64,000 nucleotides of DNA from Candidatus Nitrosopumilus limneticus. Its GTDB lineage: Archaea > Thermoproteota > Nitrososphaeria > Nitrososphaerales > Nitrosopumilaceae. The stretch is from contig JAHCGZ010000001.1 in assembly GCA_022117465.1 (NCBI GenBank), positions 248,001 through 312,000 of the forward strand, written 5' to 3'. Below, one piece after another: positions 8,560 to 44,858 of the stretch. The notes under the pieces were generated by a model. The model was not told the DNA's origin. It saw only the letters and a program-made list of their open reading frames with translations, and ran no database searches. Position numbers and translations under genes: made by a program. The stretch's first letter is position 1. Each line of letters starts with the position of its first letter.

Positions 8560-9243
8560 TTATTTGCTAATTTGAGCCCTTTGGGCATGAAATTTACCAC
8601 GAAATAGAAATGCCATAATTAAAGTTCCAACAAATGGTGCGGTCCAATACAGCCACAAATCTCCAAAAGTTCCAGATAATAATGCAGGAGCAAGGGCTCT
8701 AGCAGGATTCATAGATGCACCAGAAATAAAAGCTAAAAATAAAATATCTAATGCAACAATTCCACCAATTGCAAATCCACTAAATCCTCGTAAACCTTTT
8801 GTATATACAACATAAAAAATAACACCCATCAACATCATAGAAGCTAAAATCTCCACAGGAAATATTAAAAAGATTGAAAAATCATAGTTAGGTGCATTAG
8901 CTCCAAGATTGGGTTTTTCACCAATAAATAATAAGACAAAAAGCGAACCCAGTAATGCTCCAATTATTTCTGCAATTAAATAATATATAATTTGAATTTT
9001 TGTGATATGTCCTGTAACATAGTATGCAATAGTTACTGCAGGATTAAAATGAGCTAAAGATATTTTTCCAAAAGAATAAACTCCAATTAATAATGCAATA
9101 AAAGGTGCAACAGCTGCAAAAGGAATTCCCAAATTGCCATTAAAAAATTCAAAATCATAAACAATAGAACCTGTTGCAAAAACTACAAGAATAAAAGTTC
9201 CAATTAATTCTACAGTAAAAATTTGTAAATTTGAATATGCCAT
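8560..9243 (-). CDS. MIP-family aquaporin, probably arsenic-linked
   Basis: Six-helix channel of 227 residues with both hallmark loops: HFNPAVT in the first half and GASMNPARALAP in the second, the latter keeping the pore arginine after NPA. The gene overlaps the start region of an arsenate-reductase-like gene by one base, and an ArsR gene is divergent from both. In arsenic operons of the aqpS type, such channels let arsenite leave down its gradient after arsenate reduction; that role is inferred from context. It could equally move glycerol, ammonia or water. It may read through into hemL. Confidence 0.85.
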   Translation of the reverse strand: MAYSNLQIFTVELIGTFILVVFATGSIVYDFEFFNGNLGIPFAAVAPFIALLIGVYSFGKISLAHFNPAVTIAYYVTGHITKIQIIYYLIAEIIGALLGSLFVLLFIGEKPNLGANAPNYDFSIFLIFPVEILASMMLMGVIFYVVYTKGLRGFSGFAIGGIVALDILFLAFISGASMNPARALAPALLSGTFGDLWLYWTAPFVGTLIMAFLFRGKFHAQRAQISK

Positions 9244-9656
9244 TAGTTGTCACTTTCAAGAGAATAGAGTAAATTCAAAACATTAGTTTTAATTTGATCA
9301 CGAATTTTTCTTACATCATCAATAGATTTTCCTTTAGGATCTTCAATATTCCAATCATCTACATCTTTAACAAATAATGATGGACAAGAATTTTTATCCA
9401 TACATCCCATGTTAATAGTTTTATTGGAATCTTCAATCATATCTGAAGATAATAGTTGAGGTTGTTGTTTTTGCAAATTAATTCCAATTTCAGCCATAAC
9501 TGTAACAACAACAGGATTAAGATTAGATGAGGGCGACGTTCCAGCACTTATTACATTGAATTGATTTTTAGCATATTTTTTAAAAAATGCTTCTGCCATC
9601 TGACTACGTCCAGCGTTTTCTACGCACACAAATAAAATATTTTTGCATTCATCCAC
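9243..9656 (-). CDS. arsC: Arsenate reductase, LMW-phosphatase type
   Basis: Low-molecular-weight tyrosine-phosphatase-fold protein, 137 residues. The P-loop CVENAGRS (Cys11 to Arg17, CX5R) sits at the N-terminus, and MGCMDKNSC in the second half supplies the two further cysteines used by thioredoxin-coupled ArsC enzymes. The acid motif WNIEDPKGKS is present, with the general-acid Asp. Together with the aquaporin and divergent ArsR this supports arsenate reduction rather than protein dephosphorylation. The ATG lies about 24 bases after a palindromic TATA box, so the transcript is probably leaderless. Confidence 0.88.
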   Translation of the reverse strand: MDECKNILFVCVENAGRSQMAEAFFKKYAKNQFNVISAGTSPSSNLNPVVVTVMAEIGINLQKQQPQLLSSDMIEDSNKTINMGCMDKNSCPSLFVKDVDDWNIEDPKGKSIDDVRKIRDQIKTNVLNLLYSLESDN

Positions 9657-9675
9657 AACATAACATAAATAACAG

Positions 9676-9685
9676 TTTATATAAA
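9676..9685. promoter_or_regulatory. Palindromic TATA element between arsC and arsR
   Basis: TTTATATAAA is a perfect palindrome. Its centre is about 24 bases from the arsC ATG at 9656 on the minus strand, a good TATA-to-start distance. For arsR at 9697 it is too close, so arsR more likely uses the CATAAATAA run at 9664-9672. The two promoters therefore overlap in about 40 bases, where ArsR could repress both. Confidence 0.5.
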
Positions 9686-9696
9686 TTTTAATTGAT

Positions 9697-9996
9697 ATGA
9701 ATGGAATTAGTCTTTTGAAATGTATATGTGATGAAACAAGATTCGAGATTTTGGAACTATTACAAAAAAATAATGAATTATGTGTAAATGATTTTGTAAA
9801 TGAATTAAAAAAAGATCAACCCCTAGTATCGCACCATCTTAAAACATTGAAGAAATGTGGAATTGTAAAGTCTAGAGATGAAGGTAAAAAAGCAATGTAT
9901 ACAATAGCAAATGAGGAATTATCTCAATTAATTACAAAAGTTACAAAAACATCAAAAGAAATTCCAAATCTATGTTTAGATGAAAAATGCTGTTAA
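9697..9996 (+). CDS. arsR: ArsR-family transcriptional regulator
   Basis: Winged-helix repressor of 99 residues: CDETRFEILELLQ helix, QPLVSHHLKTLKKCGIV recognition helix and the wing around RDEGKKAMYTI. The classic arsenite site ELCVCDL is here ELCVNDF, with only one cysteine, while the C-terminus ends in CLDEKCC (Cys93, 98, 99) and Cys9 and Cys11 lie at the N-terminus. Metal sensing may therefore use a different set of thiols. It is divergent from arsC-aquaporin and probably controls it and itself. Confidence 0.88.
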   Translation: MNGISLLKCICDETRFEILELLQKNNELCVNDFVNELKKDQPLVSHHLKTLKKCGIVKSRDEGKKAMYTIANEELSQLITKVTKTSKEIPNLCLDEKCC

Positions 9997-14709: not shown

Positions 14710-16224
14710 CTAATTATACCAGGCATCAGGTTCAGCACCAGAGGAAGTATTACTCTTAGTGGGTTGTGGAACTTTCATTATTCCTTCTTTGATCAAAAAT
14801 TGAATTCCTTGAACAAAAGAATCATCATCAATTGTACCATCAGCCCACCATCCTGCGTTGTTTTTAATCCAAGATGGTATTTCATTTCCAGAATTTTTTC
14901 CTTGTGTGGTTGGAGGAATCTTGATAATTTTTTCTTTTACTAGAAATTGTATTCCTTGAACAAAAGAGTCGTCATCAATTGTACCATCAGCCCACCATCC
15001 TGCGTTGTTTTTAATCCAAGATGGGATTTTTTCAATAGGCATACTTCCATCTAAAGCATAAATTGGAACTTCTATTTGCAGATAATCAGAAGGTCCAGAT
15101 GGAACAATTCCAGTTTTAGCTAATCCATAAACCCAAATAACATAATTTGCAGTTCCAGGTACCTCCTTTACAACAAAATCTATTTGAGCTTGACCAGAAG
15201 GAGAGTAAAGAAATTGTCTGCCTTCTTCTTGTGCAATGGATCGTTTTCTAATTCCTTTATCATCCACAACAAAAATATCATATTGAACTAGGTTTAAAAA
15301 TTCAGTTTCATCATTATATTTTAAGAAATTTATAAGCCATTGCATCTCACACCCTTGAACTACATCATTTGGTCCGTACAAAGCATGAATTTGGTACATA
15401 AAGTTTTTACTAGATCTTTTAACACTAACCTCTTTTTCAATATCAGTATCACATCCAGAATTAATTTGATCATTTTCAGTAGATTCAATTCCAATGAATG
15501 GAGATTGCTGTACATTTTGTTTATACTGTAATAATTCAAAAACATATTCTGGAGGTGGAATACCTTCAGAAACATGAGTGTAAGTTTTAGCTTTTACTGG
15601 AAATGGAAAATTATCTGCAATCCATACTTTACTTACAGCTCCACCTGTTTTCCAAGACATTGCAACAGTTTCCCAAGTTCCTGCAGGAACTGTAATAGTT
15701 GTAATTTCTAACGGAACAATCTGTTGGCCACCAATGTTTCCAATTTTACCCCATGATGCTGCATCAAATCCTTTAGGACCCTTACCACCAGAACTTCCGT
15801 CAGATGTTGCAAAAGCAGATAACCAAGCAATAGATGACTTAAATGCACCACGGTAAACGCCAAGTTCAGGAGTACCACCAGTAGGTTCTGGAGCAATTTT
15901 ACCTAATTCCATTTCACCTACAATTACTTTATTTCCGTCATAAACTACAACTTCAGCTAACCATTTAGTTTCACTACCAACTATTTTATCACCTTTAATC
16001 CAGAAATCAAATTCAAAAGTAGCACATTCTTTGTAATCTACAAAACATGTTTTATAAGAAAAGAAATCACCCTGTTTAAGTCCCTCACCCGCATACCATG
16101 TAGTGCCACGTGGGAATGCATCAGAACTTACACCACCAGCTTCAATCTGCCCATATGCAGATGAAGTCATAGTTATTCCTAAAAAAAATCCAAGAACAAT
16201 AAGAAGAGATAAGGTTGTATTCAA
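14710..16224 (-). CDS. Secreted protein with C-terminal WIKNNAGWW repeats
   Basis: 504 residues with a clear signal peptide (LLIVLGFFLGITMTSSAYG, likely cut after AYG). The bulk is beta-rich with no family I can name. The C-terminus has two copies of a 39-residue module starting IPSWIKNNAGWWADGTIDDD (residues 400-438 and 449-487). I know such modules from the C-termini of many secreted thaumarchaeal proteins, where they may bind the S-layer or cell surface; that function is inference. There is no C-terminal membrane anchor. The mature protein is probably extracellular. Confidence 0.8.
   Translation of the reverse strand: MNTTLSLLIVLGFFLGITMTSSAYGQIEAGGVSSDAFPRGTTWYAGEGLKQGDFFSYKTCFVDYKECATFEFDFWIKGDKIVGSETKWLAEVVVYDGNKVIVGEMELGKIAPEPTGGTPELGVYRGAFKSSIAWLSAFATSDGSSGGKGPKGFDAASWGKIGNIGGQQIVPLEITTITVPAGTWETVAMSWKTGGAVSKVWIADNFPFPVKAKTYTHVSEGIPPPEYVFELLQYKQNVQQSPFIGIESTENDQINSGCDTDIEKEVSVKRSSKNFMYQIHALYGPNDVVQGCEMQWLINFLKYNDETEFLNLVQYDIFVVDDKGIRKRSIAQEEGRQFLYSPSGQAQIDFVVKEVPGTANYVIWVYGLAKTGIVPSGPSDYLQIEVPIYALDGSMPIEKIPSWIKNNAGWWADGTIDDDSFVQGIQFLVKEKIIKIPPTTQGKNSGNEIPSWIKNNAGWWADGTIDDDSFVQGIQFLIKEGIMKVPQPTKSNTSSGAEPDAWYN
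14764..15027 (-). repeat. Two near-identical 117-bp coding repeats
   Basis: Copies at 14764-14880 and 14911-15027, 147 bases apart in register, encode the WIKNNAGWW modules. About 45 bases around the AGWWADGTIDD codons match base for base, including third positions, so the duplication is recent or kept uniform by gene conversion. Confidence 0.8.
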
Positions 16225-16346: not shown

Positions 16347-16514
16347 ATGTGTGAATGTTCTAAAATTCACTTGTTTGAAGTAGAATTCAAGCTGGACGGA
16401 ATGACAGTAGTTCCTACTCATAAAAATTGTGGATTTTCATTAGATGGAAAGCAAGCAGACAAGTTCCAAAAAGAACTAGTAAAGTCTTGGGGCTTCGAGC
16501 AAGAAGAAGATTAG
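16347..16514 (+). CDS. 55-residue protein with CXC and HKNCG motifs
   Basis: Complete ORF of 55 codons. The product starts MCECSKIHLFEVEF, has HKNCGFSLDG in the middle and ends acidic. Three cysteines and a nearby histidine could bind a metal. A TATA-like TTTAAATT near 16295-16302 would give a leader of about 20 bases. It lies head-on to the metallothionein-like gene at 16547. Function unknown; I support it as a gene because of the compact, uninterrupted frame and the promoter. Confidence 0.55.
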   Translation: MCECSKIHLFEVEFKLDGMTVVPTHKNCGFSLDGKQADKFQKELVKSWGFEQEED

Positions 16515-16546: not shown

Positions 16547-16690
16547 TTAGAGGTTTTTTACCATTTCTTTACAAACGTTAGTTTTACATTTGCAATCTGC
16601 GCTGCATATACAATGACCTTGCATATCACAGTCACATGCGTAAGTTGGATCGCCGCTGTCAGCTTCGCATCCACATGCTTGATCGACCAT
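16547..16690 (-). CDS. Metallothionein-like 47-residue Cys-rich protein
   Basis: Complete ORF of 47 codons. The product has nine cysteines at 6, 8, 19, 21, 27, 29, 33, 35 and 40, four of the pairs forming CXC motifs (CGC, CDC, CIC, CKC), plus one histidine at 26. Nine thiols in 47 residues with CXC spacing is the usual mark of a metal-thiolate cluster protein. The palindromic TATA box TTTTAAAA at 16712-16719 is centred about 25 bases ahead of the ATG, so the transcript is probably leaderless. Base composition is visibly richer in G+C than around it. A role in binding Cu, Zn or Cd is inferred. Confidence 0.7.
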   Translation of the reverse strand: MVDQACGCEADSGDPTYACDCDMQGHCICSADCKCKTNVCKEMVKNL

Positions 16691-16711
16691 AATTAACGAA
16701 GATAATACTCA

Positions 16712-16719
16712 TTTTAAAA
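16712..16719 (-). promoter_or_regulatory. TATA box of the metallothionein-like gene
   Basis: TTTTAAAA, centred 25 bases upstream of the ATG at 16690, which fits an archaeal promoter with transcription starting at the start codon. Confidence 0.5.
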
Positions 16720-16739
16720 GGTTAGTACATAGTTTAGTC

Positions 16740-17624
16740 TTAAGTACTTAAAATCATTTCAAGTATGTCATTACAACTAGATTGAATGATTTTGGCTTGT
16801 TGTGTGAGAAGATTTGAATCAGATTCAATATCAAAGGCAATTTTTAGTATATGTATTAAATCCCCTCTTTGATTTAATTCATCTTTAATTTGAATAAAAT
16901 TTTCTTTATTGATATAACCCAGATAAAAATAACAATCAGAAAGCATAGAATTATTTAAAAAATAATCATACTTTTTTTGAATTAATTCAGAATGATTATT
17001 TTTCTCAATTATATCAGAGAATCCTATTGAAGATTTGAGCATGCGTTCTAGTAATGTAGGAGTTGCTCTCTCAATTCCAATAGTTTGAAGAACATTAGAA
17101 ATATGATTGTTAATAGAATTTTTTTCAAATTTACGAAGAGAATCCAACATATGAGAAGGACTAGAATGATTCTTGTTTAATGATGAAATCGCATCAGCCA
17201 GATAATATGAAGCACATTTTTGCCAACATGGTGCAAAAATATCACCACTTTGAATTGCATTCAAAGTTTTTTGACAGCAAAAAATAGATTCAATTAAAGA
17301 ATTTTTTGCAAAGTCATAAAACAATAAATCACGTTTTTCAGAAATTGTGGAAAGAAAAATTTTTAGATTCCATGACTCATCTTGTATAATTTTCAATTTA
17401 TCATATTGAAGAAGTTTTTTAGTATTTGTTTCAGATAAGGATGCATGATGAATAGTAATCAAGTTATTTTCAAATGAAATTATTTGATCATTAGAAGAAT
17501 TTTCATCAAAAATCATAAGATCATAATCACAAGAATCAAAAAAATAACTCAGTGATCTGCATCCACCCAATCCAATTGGAAAATTAGATAATTCCTCATT
17601 TTCAATAAATTTTTTTAAATCCAC
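16740..17624 (-). CDS. Unknown protein, possible nucleotidyltransferase fold
   Basis: 294 residues. Near the N-terminus GLGGCRSLSYFFDSCDYDLMIFD has the spacing of a Pol-beta-type nucleotidyltransferase motif (GG, about ten residues, then D-x-D). The remainder is mostly helical, with a Cys-rich patch (IFCCQKTLNA, FAPCWQKCASYYLADAI) that resembles a HEPN-like or substrate-binding helical domain. I cannot confirm activity. The start ATG faces tRNA-Glu 111 bases away. Other possibility: a lineage-specific regulator with no catalysis. Confidence 0.5.
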   Translation of the reverse strand: MDLKKFIENEELSNFPIGLGGCRSLSYFFDSCDYDLMIFDENSSNDQIISFENNLITIHHASLSETNTKKLLQYDKLKIIQDESWNLKIFLSTISEKRDLLFYDFAKNSLIESIFCCQKTLNAIQSGDIFAPCWQKCASYYLADAISSLNKNHSSPSHMLDSLRKFEKNSINNHISNVLQTIGIERATPTLLERMLKSSIGFSDIIEKNNHSELIQKKYDYFLNNSMLSDCYFYLGYINKENFIQIKDELNQRGDLIHILKIAFDIESDSNLLTQQAKIIQSSCNDILEMILST

Positions 17625-17734: not shown

Positions 17735-17809
17735 GCTCCTATAGTGTAGCCCGGTTAATCATTTTGGCTTCTCAAGCCAGAGACTCGGGTTCGAATCCCG
17801 ATGGGAGCA
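17735..17809 (+). tRNA. tRNA-Glu (anticodon CTC)
   Basis: 75 bases with a 7-bp acceptor stem (GCTCCTA with TGGGAGC), an anticodon arm with loop TTCTCAA giving CTC, and a T arm CGGGTTCGAATCCCG. There is no intron and CCA is not encoded; CTT follows the discriminator A. A TATA-like CTTTAAAT about 27 bases upstream can drive it. Confidence 0.95.
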
Positions 17810-44714: not shown

Positions 44715-44858
44715 TTATCCACCTGTTGCTGCTTCAAATAATGCACATTCGCATTTATCACGTTCACCACAGTAAGGGCACACACATACACATTTTTCAA
44801 TAGAATTACCACAATCTATACAAATAGCAAATTCTTCCTCCTCGATTTTAGAAGACAT
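44715..44858 (-). CDS. 47-residue Cys-rich zinc protein
   Basis: Complete ORF of 47 codons with eight cysteines: C13-I-D-C16, C23-V-C-V-C-P-Y-C30 and C36-E-C38. The first CXXC and the CPYC pair could form a zinc ribbon, and the CVCVC and CEC runs add thiols as in a metallothionein. The N-terminus is acidic. An ATTTATAC box at 44879-44886, read on the minus strand, is centred about 25 bases ahead of the ATG. Function unknown. Confidence 0.65.
   Translation of the reverse strand: MSSKIEEEEFAICIDCGNSIEKCVCVCPYCGERDKCECALFEAATGG

What the first reader, a model, noticed from the sequence alone, without database searches (positions are those of the whole stretch)
16547..16690. Metallothionein-like protein in a probable ammonia-oxidising archaeon
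A 47-codon frame encodes nine cysteines, eight of them in four CXC pairs, and it has a well-placed TATA box. I know of no characterised archaeal metallothionein of this pattern. Copper is central to this lineage's energy metabolism, so a copper-buffering protein would make sense; this is inference. The locally higher G+C also hints at separate selection or transfer.
Basis: partly seen in the sequence, partly recalled or inferred. Interest (0 to 1): 0.7.

Follow-up and report, generated by a model that had tools for sequence, protein, structure and literature searches.

The report
Family-wide metallothionein-like protein in ammonia-oxidising archaea
A tiny protein with nine cysteines, built like an animal metallothionein half, is carried by almost every member of one abundant family of ammonia-oxidising archaea, most of which appear to lack the usual copper exporter and copper chaperone, so it is a strong untested candidate for how they hold copper safely.

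Summary
In detail: 16547-16690 (-) encodes 47 aa with nine cysteines, eight of them in four CXC pairs. It is a real, old gene. Homologues occur in 229 of 250 genomes of the family (127 of 131 high-quality ones), all 22 genera, and in none of the sampled genomes outside the family. All 103 distinct sequences read have exactly nine cysteines in one of two spacings. dN/dS is about 0.09. A TATA box sits 28-30 nt before the ATG in 96 of 99 distinct upstream regions. The higher G+C goes with amo-like codon usage. In 37 of 63 genomes a second copy forms the probably cytosolic tail of a single-pass membrane protein. Own genome and most relatives lack detectable HMA copper domains (12 of 15) and P-type ATPases (11 of 15). 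A published survey likewise found no copper efflux proteins in marine AOA. Best reading: a metallothionein-like thiolate-cluster protein, most likely buffering Cu(I), with Zn possible. No sequence homology to known metallothioneins was established, and metal binding is untested. Rivals: a structural Zn3Cys9 domain or a dedicated copper chaperone.

The parts
16547..16690 (-). 47-aa nine-cysteine metallothionein-like CDS (stop codon included), cysteine spacing CxC-x10-CxC-x5-CxC-x3-CxC-x4-C
   Evidence: homologues; cysteine spacing; dN/dS about 0.09
16706..16727 (-). 22-nt conserved promoter element TACTAACCTTTTAAAATGAGTA: BRE-like AACC, TATA box TTTTAAAA at 16719-16712, conserved flanks; its position implies a leaderless transcript starting at or near the ATG (inferred)
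16740..17624 (-). syntenic upstream neighbour, 294 aa, no Pfam match, nucleotidyltransferase-like motif by eye; same direction as the cysteine protein but separated from it by the promoter element. Context, not part of the mechanism claimed.
16347..16514 (+). syntenic convergent neighbour, conserved 55-aa protein with 3 Cys, unknown function. Context only.
14710..16224 (-). syntenic downstream neighbour, 504-aa predicted secreted protein with PSWIKNNAGWWADG repeats. Context only.

Best explanation
A soluble cytosolic metallothionein-like protein. Its nine thiolates wrap one soft-metal cluster, by analogy with the beta domain of vertebrate metallothionein (four CXC pairs followed by one Cys, M(II)3Cys9 or about Cu(I)6Cys9). 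In Nitrosopumilaceae it most likely buffers and stores Cu(I) in the cytosol, where the genomes mostly lack a detectable CopA exporter or CopZ chaperone; Zn is the alternative metal. A second copy of the domain on the tail of a single-pass membrane protein would place the same metal trap at the inner face of the membrane in many species. Shown: gene, purifying selection, cysteine invariance, promoter position, family-wide vertical inheritance, fusion, absence of HMA and P-type ATPase matches in most genomes tested. Inferred: metal binding, cluster stoichiometry, copper, high expression, tail topology.
For: All 158 homologous loci encode nine Cys in spacing 1,10(9),1,5,1,3,1,4. 229 of 250 family genomes, 127 of 131 high-quality ones; 63 of 398 phylum genomes match, all in this family. 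dN/dS about 0.09. Same order of CXC pairs as the human MT-2 beta domain sequence in PDB 2mhu. HMA domain not found in 12 of 15 family genomes and P-type ATPase not found in 11 of 15, both including own, while 13 of 14 and 14 of 14 control genomes ring. Published: highest Cu:P quota of any marine microbe documented for N. maritimus, no copper efflux proteins in AOA, tolerance mechanism unexplained (PMC9723733). Codon choice resembles amo genes: 8 of 19 C-ending twofold codons against 622 of 3721 in window genes, Fisher p=0.008; amoA 28 of 50. C-terminal fusions to a membrane protein in 37 of 63 genomes, with lysine/arginine after the TM segment, which suggests a cytosolic tail.
Against: No metal measurement, no expression data. 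Non-Cys residues are unusually conserved for a metallothionein (DQACGCEADSGDP, D20, M23, Q24), which suggests a partner-binding surface. No family or PDB profile match; PF00131 matches only 3 of 18 members at best E 0.0098. Genomes that do have P-type ATPases also keep the gene, so it is not simply a substitute. Family Nitrososphaeraceae, equally copper dependent, lacks it. The gene order shows no linkage to copper genes.
Confidence: 0.55

Rival explanations
1. A structural zinc domain (Zn3Cys9-like, as in CXC or pre-SET domains) that serves as a protein-protein or nucleic-acid binding module rather than a metal store.
For: Strictly fixed spacing and strong conservation of non-Cys residues across 22 genera; use as a C-terminal module on a membrane protein; His26 next to Cys27 in most type A copies.
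Against: Very short, poor in hydrophobic residues, a fifth cysteine; AlphaFold2 gives no confident fold (mean pLDDT 57, though no metal is modelled); no match to CXC or pre-SET families.
Confidence: 0.22
2. A dedicated Cu(I) metallochaperone that replaces CopZ and hands copper to one specific partner, with the membrane-tethered form as its docking or relay station.
For: HMA chaperone domains absent in most family genomes; strong conservation of non-Cys surface; membrane-anchored paralogue domain.
Against: Known copper chaperones use one or two metal-binding Cys, not nine; most AOA cuproproteins are outside the membrane, so a cytosolic chaperone has no obvious client; no physical linkage to copper genes.
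Confidence: 0.15
3. A thiol redox or iron-sulfur protein rather than a soft-metal binder.
For: Nine invariant cysteines in a reducing cytosol.
Against: CXC repeats without CXXC or CX2CX2C motifs are not typical of iron-sulfur or thioredoxin-like proteins; odd number of Cys.
Confidence: 0.05
4. A chance open reading frame in an intergenic region.
For: Short ORF, no database family.
Against: Conserved protein, dN/dS about 0.09, fixed promoter and synteny, not reached in 60 simulated windows.
Confidence: 0.01

Closest known systems
Vertebrate metallothionein beta domain (human MT-2, PDB 2mhu; Pfam PF00131)
   Same: Nine Cys in the same order: four CXC pairs then a single Cys; short, cytosolic; known to hold three divalent or about six Cu(I) ions (established knowledge).
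   Different: Longer loops (x10/x5/x3/x4 against x5/x3/x2/x2), one Tyr and one His, strongly conserved non-Cys residues, single domain, no significant sequence match.
Bacterial metallothionein SmtA/BmtA (Pfam PF02069)
   Same: Small prokaryotic cytosolic Cys-rich protein with CXC pairs.
   Different: No Pfam match; SmtA has a zinc-finger fold with His ligands and a different Cys order (established knowledge).
Copper storage protein Csp (DUF326, PF03860), reported in Nitrososphaera viennensis (PMC7785015)
   Same: Proposed role: Cys-rich store of Cu(I) in an ammonia-oxidising archaeon.
   Different: Csp is a larger protein of DUF326 repeats; here no DUF326 in own genome. DUF326 hits in the order lie mostly in one other family (22 of 24), one in this family.
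CopZ/Atx1-type copper chaperones (HMA, PF00403)
   Same: Possible role in cytosolic Cu(I) handling.
   Different: Different fold and motif (MXCXXC); HMA domain not found in own genome.

Membership tests
Metallothioneins (general definition) | Low molecular mass and high Cys content with CXC motifs | tested here: met
   47 aa, 5.0 kDa, 9 Cys, 4 CXC
Metallothioneins (general definition) | Few or no aromatic residues | tested here: met
   One aromatic residue, Tyr17
Metallothioneins (general definition) | Conserved Cys distribution among relatives | tested here: met
   103 of 103 distinct sequences have nine Cys in two spacings
Metallothioneins (general definition) | High metal content in thiolate clusters | not testable with these tools
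   Needs purified protein
Vertebrate metallothionein family (PF00131) | Significant sequence match to the family profile | tested here: not met
   No match for the window protein; best E 0.0098 in 3 of 18 members, not convincing
Prokaryotic metallothionein SmtA (PF02069) | Significant sequence match to the family profile | tested here: not met
   No match
Csp copper storage proteins (PF03860) | DUF326 repeats | tested here: not met
   No Pfam match in the protein; none in own genome
CopZ/HMA copper chaperones (PF00403) | HMA domain with MXCXXC | tested here: not met
   No Pfam match; motif absent from the sequence
CXC / pre-SET zinc domains | Family profile match and Zn3Cys9 fold | tested here: inconclusive
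   No Pfam match; fold not predicted with confidence

The most novel reading that the evidence does not exclude
A previously undescribed archaeal metallothionein family that is the main cytosolic Cu(I) sink of Nitrosopumilaceae, in soluble and membrane-tethered form, and lets these archaea carry a very high copper quota without CopA-type export or CopZ.
Probability: 0.3. Interest if true: 0.8.

Novelty: new variant of a known kind. Interest (0 to 1): 0.62.

Why it matters
[quoted passage not shown] A published survey found no copper efflux proteins in them, called the basis of their copper tolerance into question, and reported the highest copper quota of any marine microbe for N. maritimus (PMC9723733). 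A near-universal, strongly conserved, CXC-rich protein with its own conserved promoter is a concrete candidate that can be expressed and measured. If confirmed it would add an archaeal family to the metallothioneins, including a membrane-tethered form.

Tried and rejected
Horizontal transfer: rejected, because gene order is conserved family-wide and no relatives were found in plasmids, phages or viral contigs; the viral scan used short peptide patterns only. Chance ORF: rejected. Pfam, NCBIfam and PDB matches: none usable. AlphaFold2 of the 47-aa protein (pLDDT 57) and of the membrane partner (pLDDT 33.7, nine rows only): too poor for a fold search, so none was run. Partner ectodomain function: no Pfam match. 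Operon-type functional inference from neighbours: left aside, because the whole neighbourhood is conserved and none of it is metal-related by Pfam. Regulon search with the promoter element: it occurs once in each of ten genomes tested, at this gene only, so no co-regulated genes were found. Literature on archaeal metallothioneins: none found in the held library.

Full report
Observation. The frame 16547-16690 (-) encodes MVDQACGCEADSGDPTYACDCDMQGHCICSADCKCKTNVCKEMVKNL, nine Cys, four CXC pairs. In 60 simulated windows no ORF of up to 100 aa came close. It is single copy in its assembly (the only other hit is a weak 15-residue match, E 0.005). The assembly has archaeal amoA.

Relatives. A search of 250 genomes of the same family found the protein in 229, in all 22 genera, and in 127 of 131 genomes that are at least 90% complete. 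Profile searches of 400 genomes of the class and 398 of the phylum found it only in this family (204 hits, 22 of 82 genera; 63 hits). The named-genome scan gave 213 relatives; the 80 kept are records titled Nitrosopumilus, Nitrosarchaeum, Nitrosotenuis, Cenarchaeum, Nitrosopelagicus or other thaumarchaea, so I take the family to be Nitrosopumilaceae. None was confirmed in viral contigs, and none matched in phage or plasmid records. Among 158 loci read, all encode exactly nine Cys, with spacing 1,10,1,5,1,3,1,4 (79 distinct peptides) or 1,9,1,5,1,3,1,4 (24). Residues D20, M23 and Q24 are also near-invariant. dN/dS in the main type is about 0.09.

Promoter. Every relative examined has the gene in its own transcription context: TTTAAA starts 28-30 nt before the ATG in 96 of 99 distinct upstream regions, as expected for an archaeal BRE/TATA promoter with a leaderless transcript (inferred). 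In Nitrosopumilus the flanks are conserved too (GTACTAACC-TTTTAAAA-YAAGTA). With up to three mismatches this 22-mer occurs once in each of ten genomes, at this gene. The pattern was derived from these promoters, so finding them is circular; that nothing else in the genome matches is the informative part. A dedicated regulator or simply a well-kept strong promoter would both fit.

Not transferred. The order 294-aa protein / nine-Cys gene / convergent 55-aa protein / secreted protein is kept across the family, including the divergent type B sequences. The raised G+C comes partly from the amino acids and partly from codon choice: 8 of 19 C-ending twofold codons against 622 of 3721 in window genes (Fisher p=0.008), while amoA has 28 of 50. 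In relatives the gene exceeds its neighbour in C-ending codons in 56 of 76 cases. This suggests high expression, on small counts.

A membrane-tethered form. In 37 of the 63 family genomes a second copy lies in a frame of about 455-526 aa (one of these has a stop inside). The frame reads: signal-like N-terminus, about 300-aa region, one transmembrane segment followed by Lys/Arg, a polar Pro-rich linker and the nine-Cys domain. By the positive-inside rule the tail should be cytosolic (inference). The gene sits beside a gene pair that I take from general knowledge to be cofD and cofC of F420 synthesis (not tested by profile). The tail exists in three states: none (own genome, G000:C1:163253-164425, ending SKGKLPKGF), divergent type B, and type A nearly identical to the free protein. 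In one genome (B12T1B11) the fused and free copies differ by 4 of 135 nt and share rare residues, while the next nearest free copy differs by 10, which suggests gene conversion there; other genomes do not show it.

Copper context. HMA domains (CopZ and the N-terminus of CopA) were not found in 12 of 15 family genomes and P-type ATPases not in 11 of 15, own genome included in both; 13 of 14 and 14 of 14 control genomes, and the three Nitrososphaeraceae-type genomes tested, do have them. This agrees with a published comparison that found no copper efflux proteins in marine AOA and only copC/copD, while N. maritimus has the highest Cu:P quota documented for a marine microbe and tolerates more Cu2+ than the bacterial oxidiser (PMC9723733). 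In Nitrososphaera viennensis a Csp copper-storage protein was up under copper limitation (PMC7785015). DUF326 matches in the order fall mostly in family f3 (22 of 24 genomes), one in this family, none in own genome; the search threshold is coarse for 21-residue repeats. Three family genomes have both HMA/ATPase genes and the nine-Cys gene, so the latter is not merely a substitute.

Mechanism. Four CXC pairs plus one Cys is the order found in the human MT-2 beta domain (PDB 2mhu sequence), which binds three divalent ions or about six Cu(I) (established knowledge). The best-supported explanation is that this protein does the same in the archaeal cytosol, with Cu(I) the likeliest metal on physiological grounds. 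Steps not shown: metal binding, which metal, abundance. The strict conservation of non-Cys residues is unlike many metallothioneins and leaves room for a partner-binding zinc domain or a chaperone.

Membership. By composition and Cys order it works like a metallothionein; by profile search it is not a member of any named metallothionein family. Metallothioneins are a functional class of unrelated families, so a new family would be a new variant of a known kind. AlphaFold2 was uninformative.

Noticed in passing
window 8560-9996: ArsR-type regulator (9697-9996 +) divergent from an LMW-phosphatase/arsenate-reductase-like protein (9243-9656 -) and a MIP channel (8560-9243 -): looks like an aqpS-type arsenic resistance module.
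   Followed up: partly
window 44715-44858 (-): A second short Cys-rich frame, 47 aa with 8 Cys (MSSKIEEEEFAICIDCGNSIEKCVCVCPYCGERDKCECALFEAATGG), no Pfam match; looks more like a zinc ribbon than a metallothionein.
   Followed up: partly
G000:C1:163253-164425 (L053) and L049-L062, L070-L091: Conserved single-pass membrane protein of unknown function beside apparent cofD/cofC; its C-terminal tail is, by species, without cysteines, a divergent nine-Cys domain, or a copy almost identical to the free protein.
   Followed up: yes
L076 and L133 (isolate B12T1B11): Free and fused nine-Cys domains in one genome differ by 4 of 135 nt, closer than to any other genome: probable gene conversion between two loci.
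   Followed up: partly
window 16706-16727 (-): 22-nt promoter element that occurs once per genome, at this gene, in ten Nitrosopumilus genomes; the flanks of the TATA box are as conserved as the box. Possible dedicated operator.
   Followed up: partly
window 16347-16514 (+): Conserved 55-aa protein with 3 Cys, convergent to the nine-Cys gene, 63-96% identical across most of the family, no known family.
   Followed up: no
window 17735-17809 (+): tRNA gene between the 294-aa protein and the next gene.
   Followed up: no
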